Assembly (NCBI GenBank): GCA_024734495.1
Contig: JALMQS010000055.1
Coordinates: 7,621,386-7,685,385, forward strand
DNA from: Forficula auricularia
Lineage: Eukaryota > Arthropoda > Insecta > Dermaptera > Forficulidae
Direction: 5' to 3'
Length of the DNA stretch: 64,000 nucleotides
A model generated the notes under the pieces. The model ran no database searches and was not told the DNA's origin. It worked only from the letters and a program-made list of their open reading frames with translations. Shown in pieces: positions 798 through 35,090 of this stretch. Made by a program: the position numbers and the translations under genes. Position 1 is the first letter of the stretch, and the number at the start of each line of letters is the position of its first letter.

Positions 798-842
798 TAG
801 TTCCTGAAGAAGGAGGGAAGAATCCTCCGAAACGTCGGTTTG
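798..842 (+). ncRNA. Hammerhead-like motif (weak stem I)
   Basis: CTGAAGA at 804-810 is followed by one spare A, a 5-bp hairpin (GGAGG paired with CCTCC), then GAAAC at 829-833 and GTC at 834-836. This is the core order of a type I hammerhead ribozyme, in which the fifth core position may be any base. Stem III is reduced to the two bases on each side of the cleavage loop. Stem I is poor: C-G, then a G-U wobble, then mismatches. It is probably a decayed copy. Confidence 0.42.
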
Positions 843-1091
843 AAAGGAAAGGAGGAAAGAAAAAAGGGAATGAAAATCCAATAAATTACGCCTTATATGG
901 ATATGTGATAATTTTTTCTTTATTCCATACCCCTGGGCAGCCTTCCATTACTTTAAAATTACTACCAGTCCTTCTCTCCAGAGAAAATTTCGTGCAGATA
1001 AATTTATGATATCTTTTTCATATCATAATTGGTGAAACAAGTGAAAAAATTTCAAAATTCGCTACCCGCTCAGGCTAGAGCTAAATAGACT

Positions 1092-1619
1092 CAGGGCCAA
1101 ATTTATCCAGTGCCGCCCTGGGGCACCCTGAAAAATGCCACCCGATTACCTAAAGCCTAAATAAAATGGGTAAATGTTTCATAGACAGTTTTCAAATAAA
1201 GAAAATTATTCATTTATAGTCGAAAATCTTACACAAAAATTATTTTTTACATATTGAAAATCATAAATTGTCAAACAAAAAGATTGGTCATAAATTGCGA
1301 CAATAATGATCATATCTAATAAGTTGTGAGCGAGCCAACAACTTTCAAAAATTGTAAATAATAAAATACATATAATATTCTCTTTACTAAAAATATGTGT
1401 AAAATTCTAGACATTGAAGTTTTATCACAATTTTATTAATAAATACTACAGTGTTTATAATCATTTATTACACACATTCTTAGTAATGAGAAAAACTATT
1501 TTATTTGTTTTAATTCATTCATGTTTTCAAATTTTTCTCACGTTCCAAATTTTGACGCCTCTGGAAATTTGCCGCCCTCGGCCCTAGCCCCCAGTGCCCT
1601 TAGTGTAAATCCAGCGTTG
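1092..1619. mobile_element. hAT-like non-autonomous element
   Basis: Both ends are related when read inward: CAGGGCCAAATTTATC on the left, and CAACGCTGGATTTACAC on the right when read on the minus strand. Both lead into GC-rich subterminal blocks containing GCCGCCCT. The flanks AATAGACT (1084-1091) and AATACCCT (1620-1627) match at 6 of 8 positions, which fits an old 8-bp TSD as made by hAT transposases. The interior is AT-rich with no transposase frame. The assignment rests on TIR style and TSD length. Confidence 0.55.
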
Positions 1620-1847
1620 AATACCCTAATTGTTTATTTATAAAGTTCATGTTACTAAGAGAAATAGATTTAAATTTACTAAGAAAATTACAAAATAGGG
1701 TGTCATTTATTAGATTCGAGATGGAAAATATTATTTTTGGATCTGTCTTTTATATAAATTAAATAATTGTTCGGGCCATAAAAAGAATCAAGTACAATTG
1801 AGTTAATTCAGAAATATGTGCACATCTATCTTAAAATTAATCATAAT

Positions 1848-1906
1848 TCATTGAGGCGCCTGATGAAGCCAAAATAAAATTGGCGAAACGTCGCGTAAAT
1901 CAATGA
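1848..1906 (+). ncRNA. Hammerhead ribozyme-like motif, well formed
   Basis: The conserved boxes are in order: CTGATGA at 1860-1866, one spare A, a hairpin closed by GCCAA/TTGGC (1868-1884), GAAAC at 1885-1889 and GTC at 1890-1892. Stem I is strong: CGC pairs with GCG next to the core, then after a small internal loop TCATTGA (1848-1854) pairs with TCAATGA (1900-1906). Hammerheads self-cleave after the H of the GUH triplet, here after C1892. Stem III has no loop (ACGT), so it could form only between two molecules. Activity is untested. Confidence 0.68.
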
Positions 1907-1994
1907 GAAATTTTTGATTTGCTACTTTCCTGTCAAAATACCTTCCAACATACTTGATTAATTATATTTAATTATATGTCAAAAGAGTTGTTTT

Positions 1995-2062
1995 TTACTC
2001 TCTTGGGAATCGAACCAATAATAGCAATCCGGGCCAATTGGCTTACACCCTGTGAGGTGAAC
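1995..2062 (-). repeat. tRNA-like SINE head (family D-like)
   Basis: Read on the minus strand, the stretch has GGTTCGATTCCC, a good RNA polymerase III B box, about 20 bases downstream of an A-box-like TAAGCCAATTGG. The same layout, including GGTGT before the A box and a GC-rich clover-like middle, recurs at about 25310-25390. The element's tail and TSD were not identified. Confidence 0.35.
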
Positions 2063-2084
2063 CCCCTGACATTTATTTACCTAA

Positions 2085-2837
2085 ATGTGTTAAATATTTC
2101 ACTGAACAATTTAAATGTTCATTTGTAAAATTTCACCGTCCAATGATTCTAAATTTAAACACGTCATAGCTATGGTACATATAGTTAATCTTGTTTTCCT
2201 AGTTATAGATATCACTATTTCATCTTTCCTTAAAATCAGTTGGTTTTTGGAATATCCGGCATCGTTTTTGGAAATGATGTATGCACAAATGTATATTATA
2301 ATTTCTAAGTTTTAATAATGGGATTCATCCCCATTTCAGAAAGGCAGATGACTCATTTTAAACAGACTGTGCGTCCGGGGTTTCAATTTTAATTGGAAAA
2401 GAATCTTCTCTGCCAGTGGGTGGAGTCCGCTCATAATTCTCGTCCCCTCTACCCTCCTCTTCACTTTTATCTATGCGTACTTATTTTAATAAATTTTCAA
2501 ATCAGGTTCCTCACAGACCTCCATAGCCTATAATTAGTCCATAGTTTGATAAAGCTTCTGGTGTTAACCAAAACCGGCACAACAGCTCTCATCTTCGTCA
2601 TCGACAACACCGACAAACATACGCTAAGTTAATTACATCCTTTGTATAGGGAATAAAGAAGCTGTTCAATTAGAAAATTAAAGAATTTTGATTATTTGAT
2701 TCAGGAGTTGTCGATTGTATGTCAGATGTGTGAATGAGAAATTTTTTTATTTCCATTTGCAGACTTTTTGCATGCTGTGCCAACATCAACAAAACTTATG
2801 AGAGTGATAGCAGTACAAAGTAAACTCAACAATATAT
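2085..2837. other. No recognisable feature
   Basis: AT-rich sequence. A slightly GC-richer patch lies around 2365-2460. No repeat partner, RNA gene or convincing frame was seen. Confidence 0.5.
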
Positions 2838-2843
2838 CTACTT

Positions 2844-2907
2844 GAAAGAGACAATAAAAGAGTGTCTTCTGCTGGAAATATAAATTTTATTAATATACCT
2901 ACCTCTT
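2844..2907. repeat. Fragment of retroelement family C
   Basis: GAGACAATAAAAGAGTG and TCTTCTGCTGGAA followed by an AT-rich TTTTATTAAT match the left arm of the family C copies at 11.8 and 37.3 kb. The family's leading GCCGAGAGTAGCAG and the inverted second arm are absent, so this is a fragment. Confidence 0.5.
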
Positions 2908-3229
2908 GAGCAATTAATTTTTCGACATCGTTGACAGCAAAGAAAGATCTCATAATATCCGTTGCCTATTCGGATCACGTAGGTAAAGCAAAAATTTGAA
3001 GCTCTTGAAAAAAATTGTTCAAAATAGACTCTGCTAAGAGGAGAGGCAAGTGATGCAAGCATAAACACAGCGAGAATATATACCAAAAAAGTGGTAAGAA
3101 ATAAGAGCTCTCCAGATATGTGGCCCAGATGGGTGAAGTCTCGGAATCTCCAAAATTTAGGCCCCCAAAATATCATATTAGTTTCTAGTTAGCTAGTCTA
3201 GATCTGAAAGAAATAAAACATTTTACCCA

Positions 3230-3660
3230 GCCACCCATTTAGGGTAGTTGATTTTTGCAACAAAAGTTTCGAAGGGCCCTAAAAAGTACTTTAAATATAA
3301 AATTTGGTTCAAATCACATAAATAGTAAGAAATTTTAAATTTTTGACCCCTACACTAATTTGGAGCTGATTTGATATTTCTAGATATCTTGGATGCCTCA
3401 GCCTTTCTATTAATAGTACCAAATTTGAAGTTTCTGGAGAGTCTAGATGTTTCTCATTAATTTATATCTTTATAAAGACACTTTTACGAACCGCCCCCAG
3501 CTCGAACACATAGAGAGTTTTTTTTGTTTTTGTTTTTGAAATGTTCTATATTTTAGGAACATTAACTTCTCCGAAATTAAGTATGAAGTTTCTAGGGGGA
3601 CTACAAGTGTCTCATGAATTGATATTGATTTTCATCTATTTATATATGTTACACAAATAG
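3230..3660 (+). repeat. Possible distant relative of family A
   Basis: The order of landmarks resembles family A: GGGTAGTTGATTTTTGCA, then GGGCCC, AAAATTTGGTT and TTTTTGACCCCTAC, with similar spacing. Identity by eye is low. It ends where the hAT-like element at 3669 begins. Confidence 0.25.
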
Positions 3661-3668
3661 ATCCCAAC

Positions 3669-4522
3669 CAATGGGGTGCGGTCCATGGATGTGTCGATGC
3701 GGCGCATCCCTAAAATTTCAAACATTTAAAGTATTTTCATAAATATATCAAATCGACTTCAAAATTTCAGGAGGATCTTTAAATTTTCAAATTATTATCC
3801 GTTATTTCAAATATTTCCATAAAAAAACATTTTTTTTGTTTTTAAAAGTATATTATATTGGTTCTCGAAATAAAATAAAATTGTTACATAATTTCAAGGG
3901 GCAATTAAAATAATTGATTTTTCTGAAAAGGGTGCTGATAGAAGATTTGAAGTCCCTGTCTGGTATATCTTCGTTCAAGCATGTCAATGACAAGTCCAGA
4001 CGAGTTTTAGTCGAATAAAAATTGTTCTCACTGAGGAACAAAAAAGGAATAAATAAAGATGATTCGGGGATCTTTAGAGTAATCCATTTCTAAGACCTCT
4101 CAATATATAAATATAAGATAGGAAATAACTAAAAGTACCATAGACAAGTCATACCTTGCTTATAATAATAGAATTACGAGAAATTTGAGATTTTCTTATA
4201 AGACAGGTTGATTCATTGTGGAAGATGGTCGATTTTCTTCATCTCAGGGACTGTTAAGTTTAATCAAATTTAGGGAATGTTGGGTTTAAGTCACAAGATT
4301 TAATTTCTGACTCCTACTCTCACTCACACAAACCAGTATCCATTTAGCCCGAAGGTCTCAAAATATATTTTTAAATAATCTAATGTTAAATTTGAAAAAT
4401 AACGAAAATGACGTATTCGATGAAATTTGCAAAAAAAAGCGAAGTTTAAAATACAATTTCAAAAAATGAAGGGTACTTTTTTGGACAGCATCCCCTGGTT
4501 GAAAAGTCACCAACCGCCACTG
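3669..4522 (+). mobile_element. hAT-like element family B, copy 1
   Basis: The left end is CAATGGGGTGCGGTCCATGG (cleaner copies begin CAGTGGCG). The right end read inward is CAGTGGCGGTTGGTGAC. The flanks ATCCCAAC (3661-3668) and ATCCCAGC (4523-4530) are an 8-bp TSD with one mismatch, as expected for hAT transposition. Further copies are at 29312-29832 (inverted, truncated) and 49214-53542 (perfect TSD, heavily interrupted). No transposase frame is visible in this 854-bp copy, so it is non-autonomous. Confidence 0.75.
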
Positions 4523-4530
4523 ATCCCAGC

Positions 4531-6408
4531 ACTTAATATTTACATTTAAAGATGAAGATGTGTTTATTCCAGCACGAAAATTCAATTTTCAGTAGATGCA
4601 GAACAAAAAAATATTTTTTGAACTTTTTTAACTTAGTGTAGTAAAAAAGTATTGTAAAGCAAAATGGCAAATTAATAATTTGAAGTTGTTTAATTAATAA
4701 CGACATACTTTTTAAATATAAATTATTTTATAGTAATAATGAGATTCCCATCACCACTTTATTCCCTATCTGGTTTCACCGAGATATTTTTGCTCTTGGG
4801 ATGATACTTTTAAAGGCCACTTGTCGATTAATATGACTGTAATTTGAGCTACTGGGCTCAGCCTTTAGATTATTATTATTATAATTTTTTTTTTTTTTTT
4901 TTTTAATGAGGAAAATTATTGCTTTTGTAGGGGAAAAAATAAAGCAAAAGAATTCGTGGAATGTATTGAAGTTTTTATCTTCTTTCTCTCTCTATCGTCC
5001 ATCTCTTTAAATCTATCAGGGAAATTTTATATTTCCTAAGATATTTAGATAAATTTCGTGATTAATTTATTCTCTCTTTGGATATAAATTAACTTTCTCG
5101 TAACGGAATGATTAACAAATCTTGATGTTTTTGTCGTTGTCTTTTTTGAGGTTTTATTTGTCAGTTTTTACTTCCTCGTTCATTTTATGACAAGAAATAA
5201 AACAGATTGCAAATGGGCCAAAACAAAATAACAATGAAGAACGCCACCGAATTCCCATTTGTGTGAATAATTTATTAACAGTAAAAATATATTTATTAAA
5301 AACTATTAGCATATATCAACAACATATATATCATTTCAAGATTTCTGCTTTCATGAGATTAATTTATCGGCCGATAATAGATATGTTGTGAGATATACCT
5401 AATGAAGACGCAGATTAATTTTTGTTTTCGAATTTATTTTTTAAAGTTTCCAAAGTAAGATGATCAAGAAGATGTTGGAAGGTTTGCGAAACATGTAAAA
5501 ATTTCAGGGTTTCAAGATAGACCATGAAGGGAATTTTTCTTGTGAACTGAAATGGGATATTTTCAGTGGCCGATCTGTGTTCAATGTCCACCCTTAGCTT
5601 GCCATTAGTTGTTTTATTTGGCTGGCTGGTTCGTTTGCTGGCTGCTCTTTATAATGCAGTATCATGTTAGCAAAACCAATATAGCTCGCCTATCAGGCAG
5701 CCATGTCTATAAATTGCTTTTTTATTTACTCGATCGAATTGTAATTACCTACATTCAACTTAATCATACAAGGGCAATCAAGTCTTGTCGGTGTCTGTAT
5801 GCTAATTAATATTCCAACAATTTAGCAGATGGACGCTTTTAGTTAGTGAGCAGGGTGTGACAAGTAGCCAGCAATTCATCTTGACATCAAGAGACAACAT
5901 TTTTTTTATTTTTTAAATTTATAATTGATTTCATTCAACCAATGGCGATAATAAAAATAAAATCAACATTTTGATATGGGAGATTGTCAGGGATGCAATT
6001 GACCTTTGATGGTTTGAAAATATTCCACGGGCTGGGTCATTTGGAGGGCAAAGGATTTCAATTGAAAAATTATTATTGAAAAAATTAATTGATTTTTATA
6101 CGATTTGAATGAAAAAAATGAAATAGCCATGACAAGAAAATGAAATATGACTATAGATAGAAAAATTGAATTTTTATTAATGTGTCGGGGACCTCCAAAA
6201 ATATGTCGAGATATCTCTAAAATCATATACAATTTTTATATTTTTGTATGATGAAATTTGCTACATAAGTAGTTTGTATTTATCCAAAAATTACCATGAA
6301 TTATTCCCACTATACCTCAGTCAAGCCATGTTCCCGCATCCTATTAAGCTAAAAACATGAAAATTTTAAATGTTAAGAGATCATCTGAAAATTTCAAGTT
6401 TTATGGTC
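4531..6408. other. Mostly unannotated AT-rich DNA
   Basis: A poly-T run lies near 4888-4905. The stretch 5560-5880 has higher complexity (GGCTGGCTGG, a CGATCGAATTG block and TAAT-rich words) and could be conserved non-coding DNA, but I cannot test this. No gene is supported. Confidence 0.4.
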
Positions 6409-6514
6409 CCTAGTAGCACAGTGTTTCAAACTGTATAGGGGCTATATATATTCTCGAAATCTATATAGGAACTATATAGTTACTATATAGTTTGAAACAT
6501 TGTGCTACTAGGGG
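6409..6514. mobile_element. Short palindromic MITE
   Basis: CCCTAGTAGCACAGTGTTTC on the left is mirrored by GAAACATTGTGCTACTAGGG on the right, with further pairing inside (CTATATAG blocks). The whole 106 bp can fold into one hairpin. There is no coding capacity, and the TSD is unclear. Confidence 0.65.
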
Positions 6515-8380
6515 TATCTCTAATCATTTTGATGATAAAGTCACCAGAAAATCGCAAAATTTAGCACTGACATAAAGAACTGAAATTATTTCTAAATTAA
6601 AATTAAATATTACTTCTCTGTACTATTTCAGATTCATTAAAATGTGTTATTATTTGATAGCAGAGATAATCAGAATTCTTGAAAGTAGCTTCTTATTACT
6701 GAAAGAGGTTTGTGGGAATAGTTGGAACTAAGGGATAGAATCCCCAGTTTTTCAGTTTAGAATTATATTTATGTTTTCTATAGAACAATTAAAATTGGGA
6801 AATATATTTTCAAGTTTATTACAAAACTGAAACCAAAACAAACGTTTTTTCAATATTTGAATTTAAAGGATACATGTCGTCATTGTTGCTTTTGGGGTCA
6901 ATTATATGTACTAAACACACATCACTTAAAATACTCTTTTTTTCATATCGAAAGAGAGCAATTCAATTAGAAAGTGAATAGTACAAAAATATAATAAGAT
7001 ATTTCTCCAAGTACACTTTCCTGTCTCACAGTAGCTATCTGCAACTAACTAAATTTATATTAAATGGCAAGTTGACAGAAAGTTCTAGACTGTTTCGTAT
7101 TTGAGTACAAGGGAGGGCTTAATTTTGCAACCACCCTCATCACAATCAACAGCATCGGAAAGCTGAAACTTCTCAAAGAAGAGAAATAACAGACACATAA
7201 TATAATTCCAACATCAAAATTTTTATTTTTACATATTTTTTAATTACAAATATATTCCAAATGAAATTATTATTCGTTTCAATTTAATTATTAATTAGTT
7301 TATTATGAAGTTATTAACTCTATCCTTTAATATTGAATGAGCAATTAATGTATATATATGTTCATTGAGGTTTCCGTGGATGGGTTCCTGGATAACCAGA
7401 CTGAGACCACGGAAACAACCCACCCCCTCTCTTCTAAATGACCCCAAAAGAGGAGCCGAAACGTCGAGAAAACCTCACAAATACACGCGGAGAAACCTAA
7501 AAAACCAGTAATAACATATATATACTAGTACATACATATTTATTTTCATCAAACAGAGGATAATTTTAGTGATTTCTTTTTATGAATCAACAACTCGGTT
7601 CCAAAACAAAACCTTTTGAATTAAATCAAAGATTTTAATTGATTCTTTCTATTTAGATGGTAAAAAGATTTATCTCCTCGAGGATTGAACCCAAGCACCT
7701 ATATACAATAAAAAAAATCATTTCCTACTACTTATGGCGAACCTGGAAAAAATCAGATATCTTACGATGTAACTAATATTATCATCAGCGTAAATAGTTT
7801 CGCAGTAAAAGATATTGACCGATATTGTACTCTAGTAAATCAATATTTTATTTATTAATTTTCTTAATACAATAGTTTTATTTTTAAAAGAATTCCTTTA
7901 AATAAATAAAAGTATTTTCTTCAATTGTGCCCTAAAATAAAAATTCAACGATAAATCTCTATAAACTTGAAATTTCTTTTTTTTTGTCTTTCTCTCCTGT
8001 AGAAAGTCCGAGGGTTGCCTTTTCTCCTGATAGCCAATAATTTAGTATCAAAAGGGGAGAGTATAAAATGTTTATCTTCATTTGTAACGAGGGGGCGGAG
8101 TAAAACAAAAAAAAAGAGAAGATTAAGATTTATTACTCAATTCTCGAAAAAAAAACAATTAGAATTTTTCCACTGGAAGCAAAAAAATATTATTGAATTA
8201 AAAAGGCGAAGGGATTTATTTTAAACTTCCTCTATGGGCAGAATTTCTATCGTTGCTGAGTTGTTTAACTACTGACGAGTTTCATGTTCGCTTAATTTCA
8301 TTCTCACAATAATGATCTAACACTTTATTATCGACCACCATTTTTATTTCTACTCCAGGCATTTTCGGAACATAAAAATT
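6515..8380. other. Unannotated, with a decayed hammerhead-like patch
   Basis: Around 7364-7485 there is GCCGAAACGTCGAG preceded by TCTAAATGACC. TGAGGTTT far upstream pairs with AAACCTCA downstream. It looks like a degenerate relative of the hammerhead-like motifs, but the CTGANGA box is not intact. A B-box-like GGGTTCAATCC (minus strand) lies near 7680-7693. Nothing else was recognised. Confidence 0.35.
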
Positions 8381-8400
8381 AATATATATATATATATATC

Positions 8401-8767
8401 CGCCCCCGTGGTGTAATGGTCAGAATAACTGACTGGCAACCCGGAGGTCTCGGGTTCGATTCCCGGCTATACCCAGACATTTTTTCTGTAAGTATAGGGT
8501 CTGGTAATAAAAATTAAGTGGGAGATAAATTTAACCGAATTTATCGCGCGGAGAATTTACCACTGCTCGAAGCCCCTAAAACCTTAGTAAATTGGATATT
8601 GAATTGTATCTAAGTTTCTGAGATTGGCTCGTGATCCCGGCTTCTTTTCCTTTTACTTTGTTCTTTTCACGATTGAGGGGCCAGCACATACAAGCCTTTA
8701 GGGGATCCACCTTCTGGTGTATCTCCTTCTCTCATCAATATCATTAAAAAAAAAAAAAAAAAAAAAA
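8401..8767 (+). repeat. tRNA-derived SINE with poly(A) tail
   Basis: The head (8401-8475) has an A box (TGGTGTAATGGTC) and a B box (GGGTTCGATTCCC), the internal promoter of RNA polymerase III. The acceptor halves do not pair, so this is not a working tRNA. A roughly 270-base body of unrelated sequence ends in 22 A residues at 8746-8767. Alternating AT tracts on both sides would hide the TSD. SINEs move with the help of a LINE, and RTE-type and Jockey-type LINE remnants occur in this window. The 3' foldback element starts only 14 bases downstream. Confidence 0.8.
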
Positions 8768-8780
8768 TATATATATAAAT

Positions 8781-9412
8781 AGTCCAAGAGCTGGTGACAC
8801 ATTTTGACTACGGATTTGACCCAACTAGAAATAATGCGTAATAGTACCGTCTATGATAGTTGAACAGGGAATGGCCAGTCTGGCTGGCCTAAGCAGGTGG
8901 ACCAGGTACTGCGCATGGTGGGAGTGCGGTAAAAAATACATATGTGTTAAAAAATATTTTTGACCCACAATGAAATTATAAAAATTATAATTTATAGTCA
9001 ATTATAAACATAACATATTAATTCCAGACCATTTGAGTGGTGGAACGTGGAACCAGACCACTCCAAAGTGTATTTTTACAACATGAAAAAATATTTGATG
9101 CTATTTTTTTCATGTTGGAATACAATTTGGGGTGGTCTGGTTCCACGTTCCACCTCTCAAATGGTCTGGAGTGAATATATTATGTTTATAATTGACTATA
9201 AATTATAATTTTTATAATTTCATTGTGGGTCAAAAATATTATTTAACACATATGTATTTTTTACCGCACTCACACCATGCGCAGTACCTGGTCCACCTGC
9301 TTAGGCCAGCCAGACTGGCCATTCTCTGTACAACTATCATAGACGGTACTATTACGCATTATTTCTAGTTGGGTCAAATCCGTAGTCAAAATGTGTCACC
9401 AGCTCTTGGACT
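8781..9412. mobile_element. 632-bp near-perfect foldback element
   Basis: The left arm begins AGTCCAAGAGCTGGTGACAC and the right arm ends with its exact inverse. The two arms, about 305 bp each, stay nearly identical throughout, around a loop near 9096 (TTTGATGC). Both ends touch AAT, a possible TSD. No open frame exists. Transcription through it would give a long double-stranded hairpin. The low arm divergence suggests a recent insertion or ongoing gene conversion. The superfamily cannot be decided from the ends alone. Confidence 0.9.
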
Positions 9413-11700: not shown

Positions 11701-11731
11701 ATAGCTTAAAGCTGGTCAATAAAATTTTCAT

Positions 11732-11911
11732 TAAATTTAAAGTTTTTGTGCCGAGAGTAGCAGAATTTTTATATATTGAAGGAGACAATAAAAGAGTGTG
11801 TCTTCTGCTGGAATTATGAATTTTATTTATTTATAACGAGACTATAGTTTCGTTATAAATAAATAAAATTTATAATTCCAGCAGAAGACACACTCTTTGT
11901 ATTGTCTCTTT
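11732..11911. mobile_element. Retroelement family C, hairpin copy
   Basis: It begins AAATTTAAAGTTTTTGTGCC with the family signature GCCGAGAGTAGCAG. It then forms a long hairpin in which GAGACAATAAAAGAGTG and TCTTCTGCTGG return inverted, around a centre CGAGACTATAGTTTCG. Fifteen-base flanks (11717-11731 and 11912-11926, one mismatch) look like a TSD. The centre is the GAAAC-TATA-GTC part of the hammerhead core that is complete in the 23.6-kb copy; here the CTGATGA half is missing. There is no protein-coding capacity. Confidence 0.7.
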
Positions 11912-11926
11912 CAATAATATTTTCAT

Positions 11927-12950: not shown

Positions 12951-12954
12951 TATC

Positions 12955-15415: not shown

Positions 15416-15426
15416 AACTTCTTCTT

Positions 15427-15616: not shown

Positions 15617-15627
15617 AACTTCTTCTT

Positions 15628-21207: not shown

Positions 21208-21215
21208 AGCAGCAG

Positions 21216-22933: not shown

Positions 22934-23152
22934 ATTCAGGGACTAAACAATTACTGAATTGTTTTCACTTTTATGTTCTAATTATGACGTTTCACCCACA
23001 ATTTGGATTTCTTCAGGTTCTTAGATTAAAGATTAATTTTTTGAAAGAAAAATATCTAAGAGCCTCAAGAAGTCCAAATTGTGGACAAAACGTCAAAATT
23101 AGAAAATAAAAATGAAAACAGTTCAATAATTGTTTGGTCCTTTATACCCTGA
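22934..23152. mobile_element. Inverted-repeat element carrying two opposed hammerhead-like units
   Basis: The left half from TTCAGGGACTAAACAATT returns inverted at the right as AATTGTTTGGTCC ... CCCTGAA. Each half contains one hammerhead-like unit. The left unit read on minus keeps CTGAAGA (23010-23016), a short CCA/TGG hairpin, GAAAC and GTC (22986-22993). The right unit on plus has CTCAAGA and AAAAC, so it has lost two essential positions. The layout recalls the paired ends of Penelope-like elements. No protein is encoded. Confidence 0.55.
22986..23030 (-). ncRNA. Hammerhead-like motif (moderate)
   Basis: On the minus strand CTGAAGA, a short hairpin (TCCA with TGGG, loop about five bases), T, GAAAC and GTC are in order. 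TCTAA upstream can pair with TTAGA downstream as the outer part of stem I, but the pairs next to the core (C opposite A) are broken. The core is intact and the stems are weak. Confidence 0.42.
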
Positions 23153-23555
23153 AAATTAATTTAATCTAATAAAAGTATGGACACTAATAAAAATAATTTA
23201 AAATTTTCTATTATAATTTTGTGGATTTTCATTTTTATTTAGTGTCAACTAGAGGGGACTGGTATGGTCCCTCTTCCTTCGTACATTCCTGGTATTCAAC
23301 AATACTATTCTGGCACAACCTGCTTCATTCTTAATATTCTTAATTTAATAATATTTTGAAAGGACTCAGTTAATTTCCATTTGAAGTGTTTGCATCAGAT
23401 TTAATCCAATTGCGATCCGCTTAAAAATAAGAAGCATCTCCTGACTTTCCTTTTTTACAGATACCTACTATCAAGGCATGTGGTCTGATAGGATGAATGC
23501 AATAATCCCCCTAAAACTTGTGCGCATAGCATGCAATTCGCCACTACGGTGGTCT
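23153..23555. other. No recognisable feature
   Basis: AT-rich flank between two inverted-repeat elements. Nothing recognised. Confidence 0.5.
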
Positions 23556-23569
23556 AATTTGAAAATAGT

Positions 23570-23977
23570 AAATTGAAAAGTTTTTGTTTTGCCGAGAGTA
23601 GCAGAGTTGTTGATTCACAAAGAGAAACAAAGAGGTTGTCCTCTGCTTGATGCAAATAAACATACACACATATATATCGAGATGATATATCTGTATATAT
23701 ATATTATTTATTTGTTTGAGACTATAGTTTCGAAGACTTGGTCTTCATCATCAGTCTTTCTTCAATTATAAATGTTTTTCATGGAGTCAATATCATATGG
23801 ATATTGAAAACTTGGTGTTCTTTCGTCACTGCTGGAGGACTAGGAACTAATAAAGCTATAATAAAGCTATAGTCTCAAACAAATAAATAATATATATATA
23901 CAGATATATCATCTCGATATATATGTGTGTATGTTTATTTGCATCAAGCAGAGGACAACCTCTTTGTTTCTCTTTGT
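23570..23977. mobile_element. Retroelement family C, hammerhead-bearing copy with 14-bp TSD
   Basis: The flanks AATTTGAAAATAGT at 23556-23569 and 23978-23991 are identical over 14 bases. The element starts AAATTGAAAAGTTTTTG, carries GCCGAGAGTAGCAGAG, and has two 111-bp arms (23617-23727 and 23867-23977) that are perfect inverses by eye. The 139 bases between the arms hold the 5' half of a hammerhead-like core read on the minus strand; its GTC lies at the inner end of the left arm. TSDs of 11-15 bp in three family members point to target-primed insertion. No protein is encoded, so movement would depend on another element. Confidence 0.8.
23710..23763 (-). ncRNA. Hammerhead ribozyme-like core with a normal stem III
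   Basis: On the minus strand from 23754 down to 23720: CTGATGA, one spare T, a 6-bp hairpin (GAAGAC/GTCTTC, loop CAA), GAAAC, a TATA tetraloop, then GTC. A15.1-U16.1 and C15.2-G16.2 pairs close the tetraloop, so stem III is short but complete, unlike the other copies. Stem I begins A-U, G-C and then has mismatches, with possible outer pairing of ATTTAT and ATAAAT. Predicted cleavage falls after position 23720. Confidence 0.6.
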
Positions 23978-23991
23978 AATTTGAAAATAGT

Positions 23992-25400: not shown

Positions 25401-25510
25401 TGATATAAGCATAAAAATTCTTCACTCCATTAATATACTAGTATAACGGAAATTAAAAAATGTAGCTTAAAATGAAAAAAGTTTTTCATACAAGTACTCC
25501 TATTTTAATA

Positions 25511-26935: not shown

Positions 26936-27047
26936 AAATGAAAAGATTTTGTTTGCCGGGAGTAGCATAACGAATATAATTTTGTATATACATTGACCAA
27001 TGGTTCCGCTGTACTTCTCTGCATGGGTGTTCCGCGAATCAAAATAA
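26936..27047. repeat. Possible diverged family C copy
   Basis: AAATGAAAAGATTTTGTTTG and GCCGGGAGTAGCATAA match the start of family C with a few changes. The remainder differs (ATGGTTCCGCTGTACTTC) and no inverted arm is seen. A short AAAAATTG occurs on both sides, a possible remnant of a TSD. Confidence 0.35.
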
Positions 27048-27116
27048 AAATTGGAAAATAATTATAAAGCACTCACAATAGTTGACTAGTGTTTTTAATT
27101 TTTCGTTAAGTGTTTT

Positions 27117-27967
27117 TAACTAAAATAAATAAGCTGACTTGTTCTGATGTGACCATCCAATTGACTTTACCATGCAACCTGGCTCCTCACTTATAATTAA
27201 TATTTAATATAATTATTTATAATTATGTAGGGTAGGGGTGTTAGTTTTTGTATTTTTACATTCTTGGTGGCCCACTGGTTATGTATACAAAATTTGGTTG
27301 AGTTTAGTAAATGGCCAAGATTTTCATTTTTTGACCCCTCCCCCCATTTCGGGCGGTTAGTATTTGCATTTTTAGACTCCTGGGGGCCCACTGTTTATGC
27401 ATACAAAGTTTGGTTGAGTTTGGTAAATGGCCAAGATTTTCATTTTTTGACCCTACACCCCCCCCCCTATTTTGGGCGTTTAGTTTTTGCATTTTTTAGA
27501 CTTCTGGGGTCCCTCTGATTATGTATAAAAAATTTGTTTGAGTTTGCTCAAATGGCCTAGATTTTTAATTTTTAACCCCCTCCACCACACTTAATTTTGG
27601 GTCGATATGCACCAAAATCTAATCAGCTCTTAATCTTAATAGACCAAAACTACGTGTCAAATTTGGTTTCGATTTTCACACTAGTTTTTGAGCTAGCTCG
27701 TCCACAAAATTTGGTAACGCACAGACTAACTAACAGACATTTTACTAGACTAACTAACCAACTAAGAGACATTTTGACAAAAAAATTATTATCTCGAAAA
27801 ATATAATTTTTTCGATGTTCACTTATAAGGTCTTTTTTGTAGACCGAAATGCTATGGTTTTGCTCAATTTTTTTACTCAAAATAGTTTCAGCCGTTTTTG
27901 AGATATTTTTCGAAAAAAAGAAGGAAAAAAAACACTTTTTTCATGCACGATTACAATACTTGACCAT
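27117..27967 (+). repeat. Dispersed repeat family A, copy 3 (three internal units)
   Basis: It starts at AAATAAATAAGCTGACTTG. It has three tandem internal units of about 115-124 bp, each with TTTTTGCATTTTTA or TTTTTGTATTTTTA, GGCCCACTG and TTTTTTGACCC, ending in GGGCGGTTAG. The usual 3' part follows and stops at TTGACCAT, before the terminal CCCTGTATGGT, so the 3' end is slightly truncated. Short frames here are repeat sequence, not genes. Confidence 0.85.
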
Positions 27968-28239
27968 TGGTCTCGAAATTGTAAATTGTCTACCTATTTT
28001 ATATGATAAATTAATGTAATCAAATTTTTAAGTTTGCTAGATTTATAATAGTGAAAAATGGTATTGATATTCCAAATATGTATGCTTCTATTTCAAAATA
28101 ATTAAATCGATAGCAGTGGATCAAAATCGGACACGACAAACATACCGAGAAGCCAACTCTAATAAAAGCATGTAATAAACTTGATTATAGTAGATTAAGA
28201 ATGAATTGAATCAGTTCTGACAAACCGTTTATGAGAATA

Positions 28240-28680
28240 TTGTTCTGAATGTGTGGCTGGAGTGTCCAGCATACGAAGAGCTGAGTGTACCTGAGGCCGG
28301 TCCTCTCGATCTGGATGTCGTTGCTGGAGCCTCACGTAATACAGGAGGCGGCCGACCAGCCTGTCTCCTTCTCTCTCCAGAACCCGTTCCAGGAGGTGGG
28401 GTCCTGGACTGTCCCGTCCTGGACATAACTCAGGACCCTCCGATACAAATCAAACGGCAGCCGAGAAACAATCGAAGGCACCCATTGTGGCTGGCCGCTT
28501 TGTTGAGCCCCGAGAGGCCCGCCGCCCGCCACGGGCATAATTCATATGACGCAATTATAAACACATTCAAGGAATCTATTGTGTATTGATCATCCCTAAT
28601 ATGGCAAGCATTGAGTGGATGCGCTCGGCTCGCAAACAGCCGAGCACACAACACAGTAGCAGCAGTGTCAGAAAATAATT
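28240..28680. other. GC-rich island with coding-like frames on both strands
   Basis: This block stands out sharply from the AT-rich background. On plus, ENIVLNVWLECPAYEEL (from about 28227) resembles the C-terminal tail of LINE reverse transcriptases, which often have a LECPAYE motif. On minus, a frame from ATG at 28538 runs with a low-AT codon pattern to ATTAC at 28336, followed directly by a donor-like GTGAGG. The minus frame contains LPFDLYRRVLSYV and SWNGFWREKETGW, which I do not recognise. Either a LINE tail or a first coding exon is possible. They cannot both be right. Confidence 0.4.
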
Positions 28681-28768
28681 AAATCTATTAGAGAGGCAAC
28701 AGTTCGGAGACGATGACTCCACTTTTTTCACCATTCAATGAACAAAACAGAATCAACTCTCACTCAAC

Positions 28769-28784
28769 CCCCCCCCCCCCCCTC
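28769..28784. repeat. Poly-C tract
   Basis: About 15 C residues in a row inside ACTCAACC...TCCC. It is a simple repeat and prone to sequencing slippage. Confidence 0.9.
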
Positions 28785-29073
28785 CCAAACCACCGCAACT
28801 TGAACTGCCATTCCATTTAACCACACATTCATGTCTGACATATCGAAAACACTTGAGGAATTTCGATTTTTCATCTTGCTTCCTTTCTTTTTATAAATTT
28901 AGAAATATTTAAAAGACAATACTACTCGTGTTTAAAAATTCCATTTAAAAACGTCATTATTATCCGCATTATATTTATTGACGAACTTGGAAAAACTTCA
29001 AGTTTTTTCACGGCACCATTTTTATTCACCTATATCAGAAGTGTTCAACTTTTTGACTTACACGCGACTTTTC

Positions 29074-29118
29074 GTTACCCTGAAGAAGGAAAGAGTAAAT
29101 CTCCGAAACGTCGGTTAT
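29074..29118 (+). ncRNA. Hammerhead-like motif (moderate)
   Basis: CTGAAGA (29080-29086), one spare A, a hairpin with GGA/TCC or GAG/CTC pairing, GAAAC (29105-29109) and GTC (29110-29112). Stem I has C-G, C-G, A-U next to the core, a mismatch, then U-A and G-U. It resembles the copy at 798-842 around the core (CTGAAGAAGGA and CTCCGAAACGTCGGTT), so the two may be one family. Confidence 0.5.
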
Positions 29119-29311
29119 TGAATAAATGTAAAATAATAAAACCGTTATAGTCTTATTTTTTACAACCACCTTGGACTGCCTTCATCAACATCCAATTGCA
29201 TTGTATCTATTTCTTGATAAATTAGACAATCAAGCGGAACTGAAAAATTCAATTCTAATCATTGTAGCCGTCTCTACAGTCGTGGCAGTCTCAATGATTT
29301 TGCGTACATAC

Positions 29312-29832
29312 CAGTGGCTGTTGGTGTCTTTTCAATCAGAGGATGCTGTCCAAAAAAAGTACCCTTCATTTTTTAAAAATTTTTTTTAGAAATTTCATCG
29401 AATACAAGGATCCTAATTCTTTTTGCTATAAACAAGTTATGACTTGTCTATAGCACTCTTAATTATTTCCGATTGTATATATTGAGAGTTCTTAGAAATG
29501 AATTTAATAGTTCCTCAGAGAGAACAATTTTTATTCGAATAAATCTCGTCTCGAATTGTCTTTGACATGCTTGAACTGGAAGATATATCTACCAGGAAGG
29601 GACTTCAAACCTTCTATCAGCACCGTTTTCGAAAAAATCATTCATTTTAATTGCCCCTTGAAAATATGCAACAATTTTATTTCATTTCGAGAATCAATAT
29701 ACTTTTAAAATCAAAAAATGTTTTTATAGAAATATTTGAAATAACAGATAATAATATGAAAATTTAAAAGTTCCTCCTGAAATTTTGAAGTCCATCTTAA
29801 TATATTTATGAAAATACTCTAAATGTTTGAAA
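29312..29832 (-). mobile_element. hAT-like element family B, copy 2 (inverted, truncated)
   Basis: It begins CAGTGGCTGTTGGTG and continues with TCAGAGGATGCTGTCC, the inverse of the right end of copy 1. It follows copy 1 in inverse orientation with one internal deletion and stops at ATGTTTGAAA, before the CAGTGGCGTGCGG end. No second TIR or TSD is present. Confidence 0.75.
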
Positions 29833-30569
29833 GATAGATAGATTATTCAAAAATTTAACAAATGACAATTACAAATGACAGTAACAATTAACAAAAGAAT
29901 TAACAATTCCATCTAGAAAGATATTTCAGGATTGGTCAGAATCAAAGATTTACTAAGGACTTAAAGCAAAGCAGAATTTTAAATAATTTGTGATTTTATA
30001 CGTACCAATATGGAAGTAGAATGGTATTTCAAATGAATTGATTTATTCCTATGGTATCAAGAGATTGGAATTTCCATATATGGTTTAATTCTATTACTAT
30101 CGTTTTTTAGGACCCGATTTCAAAGATATCTCCAACTCCATAACAAGTTTTGGACATTTTTCAAAATAATTATTCTGTGATGTTAGAATCAAATTTGATT
30201 TAAACATTGCTTTTTTTTGTGTGTTTTCTTATGTGATAAAGAATGAATGTATGAATTGGTTGATTCTTTTAACAACTAAAAATTGAAATTCTCTTCCTGG
30301 TTTCATTTTCCCGAATTTAACTTTCTTCATTTTTTCAGGATCCGACTCCACACAAAGCTTCGTCAAGGAACCATTCGTCTATTTTATTTAGAATCAAACA
30401 TGGGTTAAAGAAATTCCTCCTTTGTATGTTTTTAGTATATAAAATATATAAATCTCATTGAGATATATATTCTCTACTCCACGGATAACTTTATCCGATT
30501 CCAATTTCTCATAAAATAAGAATCGCTAATATGTTTGGAAAGATATAAATTGGATTAGATTAAGATGTA
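29833..30569. other. No recognisable feature
   Basis: AT-rich sequence with no repeat partner or gene seen. Confidence 0.45.
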
Positions 30570-31080
30570 AAGCTCCGACACCTTTTGGATAGTTGGTTTG
30601 TTTTTTGTTTGATGAGCAGGGGTGGTGAGATTGAGACTTGTTGCATCCAGCGACCCACCTGGCGGTCCTCGAATAATCACGAAAAAAAATTCCGGAAAAA
30701 AAAGAAAGAGAAGAAACAAAAAACTAAAACGAAAATCATGGGTGTAAATAGAGCGTCAATGGGCTTAATTGAGAGGAGGCGAGTGGCCCCTTGTGAGATG
30801 CGCCGACTATCCGTGGCCTAATCAATCCGTGGTAATCAGACATTCTCGAGGCTGCTGTGCTGCTCTCTCCCCCTCTATCTTGCTCTTAAAAAAATAAAAA
30901 AAAACTTAAAATGGTTCTCGTTTTTTAGGCTGCCCCACGTCCGATCAATATCGGGCCACCATTAATATTATTAGCAAAGCCCCTGGGAGTCCCCACCCAG
31001 GGGACAGCCAATTCGCGTCTTTATTAGCTCAAGATGCCTATAGAAGATACAAAACAAAACACTAATTAGGCATAACGAGG
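30570..31080. other. GC-richer island, candidate conserved non-coding DNA
   Basis: Two complex blocks lie here, 30580-30680 and 30745-31040. They hold CCACCTGGCGGTCC, TTAATTGAGAGG, CTAATCAATCCG, CCGATCAATATCGG and CCCCTGGGAGTCCCC. There is no matching repeat in the window and no long open frame. Binding-site-like words and composition suggest regulatory DNA. Conservation was not tested. Confidence 0.35.
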
Positions 31081-33074
31081 TCCCTCCAACCCAATCCAAA
31101 AATCCATATTCAAAATCTCGATTTACATTTTTACTTTCACTTTCCCAAGAAAGTAAAAGTAAAGACTATATATCACTCGTATACATTTAAGGAGGTTCGG
31201 GACTGTTTATCATTTTTATAAGAAAATTCTCAAATTTTTACCATCGAATCAATGATGTATTAGATATTTATTCCCGATATTTGAAGTTGATCATCTGACT
31301 CATTACCGAGAAATAACTGATTGAAAATTGTATTTTTAAAATGGAAGTAAATAGACCGAGCTTTTAAAAGGGCTATAACTATACAAATTATACCATTTTG
31401 AACAAATTTAGACAGTTCAATAATTCAACTTTTATGAATCGAATGATACAATTTTCAATAGATTTGATAGTCTAGATAATTAGTTATTCATAAATGTAAA
31501 AATAAAAAGTTATTTGCTGCCAACAGAATATGACAATAGCACTAGTGTACAATTCCAACTCTATTTCTTGAAATCATTTTTGTGTCAAATAAATTTTTTT
31601 ATAATGAGAAAAAATTTATCTCAATATTCTTTTTATTAATATTATCAAAACAAAGATTTTTATTCGAAATTAACCTCATTATTAACAAATTTGTTTTTAT
31701 TAAAAAATTCAGTAGGCAGAAGTTGTCACCCCGAGAAAAACAAAAGATTTTTTCGAAGATCAACAAGATAGACAAGCTGTCTCGTACTCCCTTAAGTAGT
31801 AGTAGATGGAAATATTGAGTTGAATACGAATTTTCGATTGAAACAGCAAATTCAGAAATGTTAAAAAGTCACGGGGATAGCCACATCAGTTTATTTTATT
31901 TTCAAGTGATAGTAGATATTCATTTATTTATTTGAATAAAATAATATTTTATGCATGTAAATAACCCTGATATCATATAAGTGCATTTGAATAATTTATC
32001 TATAGATAATAACCTAATTAGTTTTTATTTGTATACCTACTAAATGTATTTATTAAACAATCCAATTATTATAAATAATCACTATTAAATAATATGTAAA
32101 TAATAATTATTATCTATCTCTAAATTAATTGTGGAAAAAGATTTTTAACTCATCTAATAGATAGTGTCACATGACTCTACCTTAAACCGATTCCTAATTC
32201 AAATAATTAAATAAATAAATAAAAAATACTCAAATTTAGGGAAGGCGGTGTTGGTGTATAGGGAAACATTGTTAAAATACTCTTCTTTTTAGACGAACAA
32301 ATAATTTTTTATTTTATTTATAATTTCCCCTATAGGCTATACCAAATTATCATTTTTTCTAAAGAGGAGTCTATTTCGGTTAAAATTTCAGTGAAAATTT
32401 TTAATCAAGACAGGAAGTATTCATACCCTCAAAATGGAGAAGATTAAATTTTTGATTGATGTGAATAAGATAATGATTTGATTCATGATAACCTTGATTA
32501 AAGCAAAATCTAAGCTTAGACCAGATTGCTTGTTACCTCCTTGTTGACTTTGACATTCTCCGAAAGCAGAATGCCAGGGACGTCGCGATAACCCCAACGA
32601 CCCCTGCAATGTGGCGGGGCCTATGGTATGTTACGGGCCCCGAAAACAGATCACTTTAAGAAATTCAATCAACGATTAAACAATAATATCTGCTAAATTC
32701 CTCACAATTTTTGTCTTATTTTAATTAAGAAAACGTCAAAGTATACGTAACTACATTTGAATTTATATTAGTATTTTTTTATTCACTTTTATAAAACTTC
32801 ATTACTTATTCTTATTAAAATATATTTTATAAAATAAACGAAATTTCTCATTTCTTATTGGTCAATTTACTTGAAAAGTCACTTATCTATAATCAAGTAG
32901 CAATTAAGCAAGAACTCTAAATAATACTAGAGGAAGACTTTATAAAACGTCCTATTTCATCATATGCAAATTCGAATAATACCTACAACCTTTAATTACC
33001 CATTTAATTTAATAGAGTGAATGAACTTTATGATTAAATAACAAATTATGTAGGTATCACTGATTTCGACAAAA
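31081..33074. other. Mostly unannotated
   Basis: AT-rich sequence. A GC-richer patch at 32540-32645 (GGCGGGGCCTATGG, ACGGGCCCCG) could be one end of a DNA element whose other end I did not find. No gene is supported. Confidence 0.4.
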
Positions 33075-34190
33075 CCTCTCGATATAACAGAAGAAAAGAA
33101 TTAAATTTTAAATGAGAAATAAGTCGATTTTATTTTATCGATTTAATTTATCTGAAGGTTCATAGTAACATTTTAATACAAGAAAATAACATTTTGATTA
33201 AGAATTTTGTAGTTTAAAAGAAATTGTATGAAAAGATTCAATTTGTTGTCTCCAAGAGCGATTCAAGTAGAAATGGCAAAATTGTTTATTTTTTTTCTCA
33301 TTAGATATTTTTCTAATCTATTGAAATTTCATATCTGTGTGTTATTTTCATTTATCTTTTATATCAAATAATTATTATTAGAAAATTTGCATTTTAAAGA
33401 GTAGTTTATTTGAAGTCCACTTTGAAAAATCGCTAATAACTCAGTTGAAAATTAAAAAAAATATGAAATTAATAGAAATTATAAAACAATTAATAATTAA
33501 TAATTTAATTCAATTTTTAACGAAATCGATTCCGTACTTTTTGAGAAAATCGTCAAAAACCCCGAAAATCGTCTTTGAAAGGCCGTTTTAGAAACATTTT
33601 TAAATTCACCTCCATGTCACAAGTCAATGTTTTGTTTCATATGACTTTTTAAACTTTTTTCAAAAGGCATCTCGTGCTCTCAAAAAACATCGTTTTTTAG
33701 ACGGTTCAGATGGTTTTGGACGGTTTTCTCAAAAAGTAATGAATCTATTTTGTTCAAAATTGAATTAAATTATTAATAATTGATTGTTTTATAATATCTA
33801 TTAATTTTATATTTTTTAAAAAATTTTCAACGGGGTTATTAGCGTTTTTTCAAAGTCAACTTCAAAAAAACTACCCTTTAAAATGCAAATTTCCTAATAA
33901 TAATTATTTGATATAAAAACCGAAAATAACACGGAGATATGATGTTTCATTAGATTTGAATAATTATCTTATGAGAAAAAAAATAGGAGTAAAACTTTTT
34001 GCCATTTCTAGTTGATTCGCTCCCGGAGAGAAGTAATTGAATCTTTTCATACAATTTCTTTTAAACGATAAAATTATTAATCAAAATGTTATTTTCTTAT
34101 ATAATTGACATACTGTGAACCTTCAGATAGATGAAATCGATAAAATAAGATCGTTTTCTTTCTCATTTATAATTCTGTTTTATCAAGAGG
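33075..34190. mobile_element. 1.1-kb imperfect foldback element
   Basis: CCTCTCGATATAACAGAA on the left is mirrored by TTCTGTTTTATCAAGAGG on the right. The two roughly 500-bp arms stay alignable throughout, e.g. CTGAAGGTTCATAGTA against TACTGTGAACCTTCAG, and TTTGCATTTTAAAG against CTTTAAAATGCAAA. The loop is near 33630. Arm divergence is much higher than in the 8.8-kb foldback, so it is older. There is no protein frame. Confidence 0.8.
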
Positions 34191-34876
34191 CTGGGTCGCA
34201 AGTCACCCGGCATCAGCGAGTCATTTGTTACGGGTTTCTAGCTTTTTATCATTATCTTAAAAACTGATCTATCAATTTCGTTCAAAATGGAATATAATTA
34301 TTAATAATCGATTATTTTATGATATTTATTAATTTGATATTTTTAAAAATTATTTCTTTCTTGTTAGAGTGAGTTGCTGGAGTTGGTTGTTGAATGAAGT
34401 TGCTAAGAGTAAGTGGTAAGTTGTTGTTGATGCTCCAGGGGCTCAGGACTACGATCCTATTTTATTAATAAACTCATTTATCGTATTGTATATATTTTAA
34501 ATTGTGTTTTATTTTAAACCCCTCTCGAAGAATTTACTTATAAAAGAAGAAACCCACTCCTACATATATAAACATCAGTAGGTTTGCTAACCAACGCTCC
34601 GCGGCTCAAGACAGAGGACAGAGGAAAGATATTTTCATAATATTAGTATTGAAATAAATTAATATTTTCAGATATTAAAATTTAATATACCGATATAAAT
34701 ATACGAGTACAGCAGCGGGACTGGCGACAAGGGCTCACTCCAGAGGCTCAGGGCCTTGAAAACAATTATTATATTAGTAGTATCGAATAAATAATTATAT
34801 TATTAAATAACATAATGTCTTAGGAGAATGTCATTAAAAAAACTAAGGATTTTAAAGCATTAATTTATATGATACT
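34191..34876. other. Unannotated, perhaps a solo LTR-like patch
   Basis: The stretch 34365-34560 has GTTGCTGGAGTTGGTTG and GGGGCTCAGGACTACG followed by AATAAACTCATTTATCG, which could be the R/polyadenylation part of an LTR. A related CCAGAGGCTCAGGGCC recurs near 34740. No matching second copy or TSD was found. Confidence 0.25.
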
Positions 34877-34965
34877 ATTGAGTGTTTTATTATAGGATGA
34901 GAATTCAATGGTAAAAGGGGCAACGAAAAAGTTATTATACCAAACTTTATGACTTTAATATTTTT

Positions 34966-35090
34966 TTTTTTTTTTTTTGTTTAGGTTTAAAATAAGAGAC
35001 GTGCAGCTTCAATTTTTTTTTATTTATTTCTCAATTCCCACTAACGTTTCGGCCATTGGTTATGGCCATCTTCAGAGCGGGAATTAGTTT
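34966..35090 (-). mobile_element. 125-bp retroposon with poly(A) tail, 12-bp TSD and a hammerhead-like fold
   Basis: Read on the minus strand it begins AAACTAATTCCCGCTCTGAA, contains a hammerhead-like fold at its 5' end, then about 50 bases (AATAAATAA, GAAGCTGCACGTCTCTT, AAACCTAAAC), and ends in about 12 A residues. The flanks TTTAATATTTTT at 34954-34965 and 35091-35102 are a 12-bp TSD. The neighbouring tandem copy at 35196 shows the empty site. The poly(A) and TSD show insertion by an RNA intermediate. No protein is encoded. Confidence 0.85.
35033..35085 (-). ncRNA. Hammerhead ribozyme-like motif, best paired copy
   Basis: On the minus strand CTGAAGA (35075-35069), one spare T, a 6-bp hairpin GGCCAT/ATGGCC (loop AACCA), GAAAC and GTT (35045-35043). 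Stem I is ten continuous pairs: AATTCCCGCT upstream with AGTGGGAATT downstream, one of them a G-U wobble. The triplet GUU is permitted for hammerheads, though usually slower than GUC. Stem III again is ACGT without a loop. Expected cleavage lies just after U at 35043. Confidence 0.7.

What the first reader, a model, noticed from the sequence alone, without database searches (positions are those of the whole stretch)
798..35085. Hammerhead-ribozyme-like motifs recur in at least six places in unrelated repeats
CTGANGA, one base, a hairpin, GAAAC and GTC/GTT occur in that order at 798-842, 1848-1906, 22986-23030 (minus), 23710-23763 (minus), 29074-29118 and 35033-35085 (minus), with decayed relatives near 7430, 13000 and in the 51-kb array. 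The chance of so many intact cores plus complementary flanks in 64 kb is low. Known: compact type I hammerheads occur in Penelope-like retroelements and some satellites. Inference: this genome carries one or more families of self-cleaving repeat RNAs, with the partner enzyme encoded elsewhere.
Basis: partly seen in the sequence, partly recalled or inferred. Interest (0 to 1): 0.9.

Follow-up and report, generated by a model that had tools for sequence, protein, structure and literature searches.

The report
Hammerhead motifs in Penelope retrotransposon ends
Six short stretches here match a hammerhead-ribozyme-like RNA shape; one lies in an end repeat of a Penelope-like jumping gene and the other five likely do too, in a genome with about 30,700 close matches, so this is a known kind of element, and whether these copies cut RNA is untested.

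Summary
With stem II of at least 4 pairs the window has 5 cores against 0.017 per shuffle. A covariance model built only from copies outside the window has these six sites as its best hits, E 3.7e-14 to 1.1e-4. Stems I and II show compensatory changes. Rfam 15 misses the sites: helix III is absent and one extra base precedes stem II. A strict pattern occurs 30,720 times in the 1.06-Gb genome, against 7 for the reversed control. Copy D lies in a 285-bp stretch 98% identical to an end repeat of a Penelope-like element (PLE) family; a member has an 858-aa ORF with RT and GIY-YIG domains. A sense motif lies downstream of GIY-YIG in 25 of 30 loci. Of 19 sampled head-to-head units, 15 have a tail on exactly one side and 15 have target-duplication-like repeats. 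Minimal hammerheads in PLEs are already published. Cleavage was not tested; head-to-head units are predicted to hide the motif in a hairpin (19 of 19), so tandem copies look likeliest to cut.

The parts
796..844 (+). Hammerhead-like motif A (stems I and II plus core, GAAACGTC)
   Evidence: Core; model R1 45.0 bits, E 7.4e-11
803..1003 (+). pLTR-like arm carrying motif A, ending in the conserved tail (about 961-997)
   Evidence: 80% identical to L014 over 209 columns; tail read from the sequence by eye
463..691 (.). Inverted inner arms (463-523 against 631-691) of the same kind of unit
   Evidence: 83.6% inverted match over 61 bases
1852..1900 (+). Hammerhead-like motif B
   Evidence: Model R1 56.1 bits, E 3.7e-14
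1786..1967 (+). pLTR-like arm of motif B, family of locus L021
   Evidence: 84% identity to L021
22978..23024 (-). Hammerhead-like motif C
   Evidence: Model R1 27.9 bits, E 9e-6
23056..23102 (+). Decayed partner of motif C (CTCAAGA core) on the other arm
   Evidence: Model R1 E 0.008
22940..23140 (.). Head-to-head palindrome holding motif C and its partner
   Evidence: 79.6% self-inverted over 206 columns; no target duplication of 8 bp or more found in the flanks tried
23712..23762 (-). Hammerhead-like motif D (GAAACTATAGTC)
   Evidence: Model R1 24.2 bits, E 1.1e-4; the same motif lies between the tandem PLE ORFs of L059
23570..23976 (.). Head-to-head PLE pLTR insertion with motif D on one arm; the other arm starts inside the motif
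   Evidence: 23571-23855 is 98.2% identical to the PLE end repeat of L074; palindrome 23617-23977, 81.7%
23555..23569 (.). Left copy of the 15-bp target site duplication of insertion D
   Evidence: Repeat also at 23977-23991
23977..23991 (.). Right copy of the 15-bp target site duplication of insertion D
29072..29120 (+). Hammerhead-like motif E
   Evidence: Model R1 45.2 bits, E 6.4e-11
29066..29202 (+). pLTR-like arm of motif E, family of head-to-head locus L023
   Evidence: 94.9% identity; no target duplication found in the flanks tried
35035..35083 (-). Hammerhead-like motif F (GAAACGTT, long stem I)
   Evidence: Model R1 37.2 bits, E 1.6e-8
34966..35090 (-). Single-arm insertion carrying motif F, with a 3' A run
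   Evidence: Flanked by 12-bp repeats at 34954-34965 and 35091-35102; a duplicate of the site without the insert is read by eye
50638..51347 (.). 118-bp tandem and inverted array with decayed motif remnants
   Evidence: model hit 50960-51008 at E 0.078

Best explanation
The six sites carry the conserved hammerhead core with two covarying stems, one of them lies in an end repeat (pLTR) of a Penelope-like retrotransposon and the other five likely do, and they would cut tandem PLE transcripts when two copies pair through a short palindromic stem III. Shown: core, stems I and II, the PLE ORF with RT and GIY-YIG, the motif between tandem ORFs, and head-to-head units of which most have a tail on one side and target-duplication-like repeats. 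Inferred: the PLE protein cuts both target strands and copies the RNA from each side, using two start sites some 25-45 nt apart; the two cDNAs stop early and join, which leaves a palindrome with the RNA 3' ends outward and a tail on one side. Inferred: GAAACGTC and GAAACTATAGTC hold palindromes (ACGT, ACTATAGT) that replace helix III in a dimer, with the cut after GUC. Predicted: head-to-head units hide the hammerhead in a hairpin, so activity would be confined to tandem copies.
For: Model R1, built without window sequence, has the six sites as its six best hits. Covariation: 88.8% of cells paired against 56.1% shuffled, with a change on both sides at 10 of 10 pairs (A1, 8 sequences, 4 of them from the window); 83.6% against 56.2%, 9 of 10 pairs (A2, 11 non-window sequences; for that last count 58 of 500 shuffles reach 9). 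Genome count 30,720 against 7. P0001, 858 aa: RVT_1 E 1.6e-16, GIY-YIG E 8e-6; 112 homologues at E <= 1e-3 of 7,994 scored, those named with an organism being animals, several of them insects. PLE units 2.9 kb apart in tandem with the motif in both inter-ORF gaps of L059. Sense motif within 1.5 kb downstream of GIY-YIG in 25 of 30 loci, in PLEs 48-63% and about 29% identical to P0001 with different stem II arms. Model hit at E <= 0.1 in 20 of 20 fetched GIY-YIG loci. Neighbouring motifs: 19 head-to-head, 1 tail-to-tail, 3 tandem among 100 listed places; GIY-YIG hits: 11 head-to-head, 0 tail-to-tail, 2 tandem among 150. Tail at 0.75 identity on exactly one side in 15, both 0, neither 4 of 19 units; repeats of at least 11 bp at the outer ends in 15 of 19 against 18 of 342 mismatched flanks.
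Against: No Rfam hammerhead hit. All copies aligned here have one extra base between CTGANGA and stem II, and helix III cannot form within one molecule. Stem I is weaker than stem II: 3.8 of 6 pairs own against 2.75 swapped, 74.5% of cells in A2. The lowest-energy monomer fold shows stems I and II with an open core in only 3 of 14 copies by my reading, and 9 of 14 dimer folds are plain long duplexes, so folding does not single out the double hammerhead. For families A, B and E the loci I held show no PLE ORF beside the motif and I could not fetch more; C and F are not traced to any PLE. In the anole PLE the hammerhead cut only with protein present, was not needed for insertion, left no RNA-seq ends at the cut site, and the two start sites showed no difference between the two target strands (PMC11167929), which speaks against one fixed start per strand.
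Confidence: 0.88

Rival explanations
1. The motif is only a DNA or protein-binding signal of the PLE end, and its hammerhead shape no longer cuts RNA. (This and the next rival share the PLE origin with the best explanation, so the odds are not exclusive.)
For: Extra base and missing helix III; in the anole PLE the insertion reaction works with a dead hammerhead (PMC11167929, section 3). Head-to-head copies are predicted to be held in hairpins (19 of 19).
Against: The core bases are invariant in the copies aligned while both stems covary as RNA pairs, which a linear DNA signal would not need. The core was part of the search pattern, so its invariance is partly built in; the stems were not.
Confidence: 0.25
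2. The head-to-head units arise by self-priming of one cDNA (snap-back) on an antisense template, as proposed for Adineta vaga, rather than by priming from both target strands.
For: Palindromic junctions and head-to-head order were explained this way by the authors (PMC3846280, Discussion); the anole data show no strand difference in start sites.
Against: The anole protein cuts and extends both target strands in vitro; a tail on one end only fits two separate starts, though it does not exclude snap-back.
Confidence: 0.3
3. The repeats are retrozyme-like small circular-RNA elements that use the PLE enzyme, rather than PLE ends.
For: L022 holds four direct copies 117-125 bp apart, and the window array has a 118-bp period.
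Against: In the listing of 100 places close neighbours are head-to-head 19 times and tandem 3 times; published metazoan retrozymes are 150-450 bp repeats with canonical type I hammerheads (PMC7229834 passages).
Confidence: 0.12
4. They are foldback or MITE-type DNA transposons whose terminal inverted repeats happen to contain the motif.
For: Short palindromic units with target duplications.
Against: Units of one family differ in how far the arms reach inward (9 units printed), one end carries an extra tail, and the same motif and layout flank PLE ORFs.
Confidence: 0.03
5. Chance matches in AT-rich DNA.
For: Rfam finds nothing; four of the ten CTGANGA..GAAAC matches in the window look like chance.
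Against: Shuffles, reversed-pattern control, independent model.
Confidence: 0.01

Closest known systems
Minimal type I hammerheads of Penelope-like elements (Cervera and de la Pena 2014; Lunse et al. 2017; both seen only as citations)
   Same: Core without helix III, in pLTRs of PLEs, thousands of dispersed copies in many metazoan genomes, proposed to cut as dimers (review PMC7761336, passages read)
   Different: In my sample most close neighbours are head-to-head pairs; some families carry a longer palindrome (ACTATAGT); cleavage not tested. Whether those papers already report these points I could not see
Poseidon PLE of Anolis carolinensis (PAc, PMC11167929; section 3 read)
   Same: One ORF with RT and GIY-YIG, tandem units, hammerhead at the pLTR-ORF junction, two start sites that explain the tail, cuts and extends both target strands
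   Different: In L059 the motif lies about 200 nt before the first methionine of the frame (read), whereas in PAc it overlaps the start of the ORF
Penelope families of Adineta vaga (PMC3846280; passages and Discussion read)
   Same: Head-to-head inverted pLTRs with palindromic junctions, optional 31-bp tail on one of them, 8-10 bp target duplications in some insertions
   Different: Low copy number there and no hammerhead mentioned (0 occurrences); here tens of thousands of motifs
Metazoan non-LTR retrozymes (PMC7229834; passages read)
   Same: Type I hammerhead core in short repeats; PLEs proposed as their helper
   Different: Those are direct tandem repeats of 150-450 bp with canonical hammerheads; of the loci I fetched only L022 resembles them

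Membership tests
Penelope-like element | Single ORF with RT and GIY-YIG endonuclease | tested here: met
   P0001 from L059: RVT_1 390-589, GIY-YIG 751-790. The window itself has no tblastn match to P0001 at E <= 1e-3: window copies lack the ORF
Penelope-like element | Tandem or partial-tandem units giving pseudo-LTRs | tested here: met
   L059: ORFs at 689-3262 and 3598-6171 plus a partial one at 6506-7786, same strand
Penelope-like element | Inverted head-to-head copies with an optional tail on one side | tested here: met
   window copy D
Penelope-like element | Target site duplication of variable length | tested here: met
   15 of 19 units with repeats of at least 11 bp against 18 of 342 mismatched; in the window D 15 bp and F 12 bp, none found for A, B, C, E
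Hammerhead ribozyme | Core CUGANGA and GAAA with UH before the cut | tested here: met
   the core was part of the search pattern
Hammerhead ribozyme | Stems I and II kept by compensatory change | tested here: met
   stem I weaker than stem II
Hammerhead ribozyme | Helix III within the molecule and Rfam model score | tested here: not met
   ACGT and ACTATAGT leave no loop; no Rfam hit. Filed as a PLE-type minimal variant, not as a canonical hammerhead
Hammerhead ribozyme | Self-cleavage | not testable with these tools
   Needs RNA work
Metazoan retrozyme | Direct tandem repeats with a canonical type I hammerhead | tested here: not met
   Close neighbours mostly head-to-head and no helix III; L022 is a tandem exception

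The most novel reading that the evidence does not exclude
Each PLE insertion in this genome is built by two coupled reverse transcriptions, one from each target strand, that start at two different fixed sites on the RNA. That would give one tail per unit and would have produced a huge class of palindromic mini-elements whose hammerheads switch themselves off, while the rarer tandem copies keep the dimer ribozyme alive.
Probability: 0.35. Interest if true: 0.6.

Novelty: new member of a known kind. Interest (0 to 1): 0.38.

Why it matters
PLE hammerheads are described, but their role is called a mystery in the review I read in passages (PMC7761336). This genome offers some 30,700 strict matches in several families, and the 19 units examined carry target duplications and mostly one tail, so the insertion mechanism could be read statistically. 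Rfam missed all six copies here, so hammerhead counts made with Rfam alone would be too low in such genomes.

Tried and rejected
Rfam hammerhead models: no hit on the window, nor on the 81-base pieces with copies B and F searched alone (the other four copies were not searched alone). The strict GAAACGTC pattern missed the PLE of L059 because that family has TATAG before TC; it was found with a looser pattern. Cofolding of 14 copies did not single out the double hammerhead. The Rfam microRNA-like hits at 9041-9151, 50796-51032 and elsewhere are below gathering score and the two named ones lie on palindromes. The matches at 52301 and 59715 lie in two near-identical stretches 7.4 kb apart with ORFs at 58045-59369 between them that look gag-like to me (no family search done); model E 0.05 each. 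MITE and chance readings rejected as set out under rivals. I looked by eye for clustering of truncation points at the hammerhead (copies A, L025) and dropped it: too few cases. Not done: genome-wide counts of head-to-head against tandem pairs, of the TATAGTC family and of family F, because the genome search did not answer again.

The one-tail test used five probes of 24-38 nt typed from the longer side of some of the same units, so the presence side is partly circular; the absence on the other side is not. In four units no probe reached 0.75: L018 and L020 scored 0.70 and 0.71 on one side and 0.52 and 0.54 on the other; L019 and L021 are families without a probe. The sample L009-L028 was chosen because its copies were close together in the listing, so it is not a random sample of all copies; 19 of its 20 loci were used (the tandem L022 was left out).

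Changes at the second look: D is tied to the 858-aa ORF through its family (the 98% match is to L074, whose own open frame is 449 aa; the 858-aa frame is in L059), the anole strand result and the Adineta self-priming proposal were added against my reading, and that proposal was added as a rival.

Full report
What was checked. Dinucleotide shuffles (60) give 0.33 cores per window where 10 are seen, and 0.017 where 5 are seen with a stem II of at least four pairs. Rfam release 15 gives no hammerhead at gathering score or at E up to 10 on the window, nor on two 81-base pieces with copies B and F. A covariance model made from 11 copies elsewhere in the genome (alignment A2; model R1) has the six sites as its six best matches, E 3.7e-14 to 1.1e-4; the seventh, E 0.008, is the decayed partner of copy C; four more lie between E 0.05 and 0.69. 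Relatives of copies A, B and E are in the model, so those three scores are not fully independent.

RNA structure. Across families the core letters are invariant (they were part of the search pattern) while stems I and II change together. In A1 (8 sequences, four of them from the window) 88.8% of cells pair against 56.1% in shuffles, and all 10 pairs show a change on both sides. In A2 (11 non-window sequences) the values are 83.6% and 56.2%, with 9 of 10 pairs. Swapping stem II arms between 12 representatives lowers pairing from 4.6 to 2.5 of 5; for stem I the fall is smaller, from 3.8 to 2.75 of 6. Two features differ from a textbook hammerhead: one extra base between CTGANGA and stem II, and no helix III. 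In place of helix III stands a palindrome, ACGT or ACTATAGT, seen directly in the sequence; that it pairs between two molecules is inference, in line with the dimer model cited in PMC7761336 (passage). Folding of 14 copies alone and in pairs does not single out this dimer.

Genome scale. The pattern CTGANGANN{4,30}CGAAACGTC occurs 30,720 times in 1,061,512,967 bases, 7 times in the reversed control, about one per 35 kb.

Link to Penelope-like elements. A search for GIY-YIG scored 150 of 3,423 candidates, all listed as over the cut-off. Locus L059 holds two same-strand ORFs of 858 aa about 2.9 kb apart and a third partial one, with CTGATGATGAAGACCAAGTCTTCGAAACTATAGTC in both gaps. The protein has RT and GIY-YIG domains and 112 homologues at E <= 1e-3; those named with an organism are animals. 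In 25 of the 30 best loci a sense motif lies within 1.5 kb downstream of GIY-YIG; 5 have none. These include PLEs 48-63% and about 29% identical to P0001, with other stem II arms and, in the 29% group, with GAAACGTT. All 20 GIY-YIG loci fetched later have a model hit at E <= 0.1. Window copy D is 98.2% identical over 285 bp to the end repeat of one of these (L074), carries the motif of L059, and is flanked by a 15-bp repeat.

Layout. Among the 100 listed motif places, neighbours within 800 bp are 19 head-to-head, 1 tail-to-tail and 3 tandem; among the 150 GIY-YIG hits, within 6 kb, 11 head-to-head, 0 tail-to-tail and 2 tandem. In 19 head-to-head units the inverted arms reach 75-166 bp outward from the start of the motif; in the 9 units printed in full the arms stop at different inner points. 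A tail (probes of 24-38 nt) is found on exactly one side in 15 units, on both in 0, on neither in 4. Direct repeats of at least 11 bp at the outer ends occur in 15 of 19 units against 18 of 342 mismatched flanks. This is the layout described for Penelope in Adineta vaga (PMC3846280), and the tail corresponds to the stretch between two reverse-transcription start sites in the anole PLE (PMC11167929).

How it works. The best reading is that the PLE protein opens both target strands and copies the RNA from each side, that the copies stop early and join, and that this leaves palindromic solo ends. This is inference from the layout and from the anole in vitro work. Against it, the anole start sites did not differ between strands, and the Adineta authors prefer self-priming on an antisense template. 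The hammerhead would cut tandem transcripts as a dimer. In head-to-head units the lowest-energy fold pairs the motif with its own antisense arm in 19 of 19, so these copies are predicted to be silent. The anole paper reports that its hammerhead needs protein to cut, is not needed for insertion in vitro, and leaves no read ends at the cut site in public RNA-seq, so its role stays open.

Copy F is different. It is a single-arm insertion of about 125 bp with an A run, flanked by 12-bp repeats, and a duplicate of the site without the insert lies next to it (read by eye). Its family was not traced.

Novelty. Searches of the paper library found this kind already described: minimal hammerheads without helix III in PLEs, and head-to-head pLTRs with an optional tail. 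In what I read I saw no statement that every unit has exactly one tail, but I read only passages and sections, and the two key papers (2014, 2017) are not held. I file this as a new member of a known kind.

Noticed in passing
L022 (G000:C4:1021700-1024200), 1005-1399: Four direct copies of a GGGGG-stem variant of the GGAGG-type motif 117-125 bp apart, shorter than the published metazoan retrozyme RNAs (170-400 nt); a candidate for tiny circular RNAs.
   Followed up: partly
34600-35400: Local direct repeats (89 bp, 100% and 98.9%) around insertion F that preserve a version of the site without the insert.
   Followed up: partly
52200-59800: Two near-identical stretches 7.4 kb apart with gag-like ORFs at 58045-59369 between them, perhaps an LTR retrotransposon; the repeats carry a CTGAAGA..GAAAC match that looks like chance.
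   Followed up: partly
40788-42169 (-): ORFs that look like LINE-type reverse transcriptase by eye.
   Followed up: no
9041-9151: Near-perfect palindrome that matches an Rfam microRNA family on both strands below its gathering score; perhaps a small foldback element.
   Followed up: no
11730-11916 and 37271-37406: pLTR pieces of other PLE families in both orientations without a hammerhead core.
   Followed up: no
L059, L060, L070, L071: ORF-bearing PLE copies in tandem and head-to-head arrangement, several with long open frames.
   Followed up: partly
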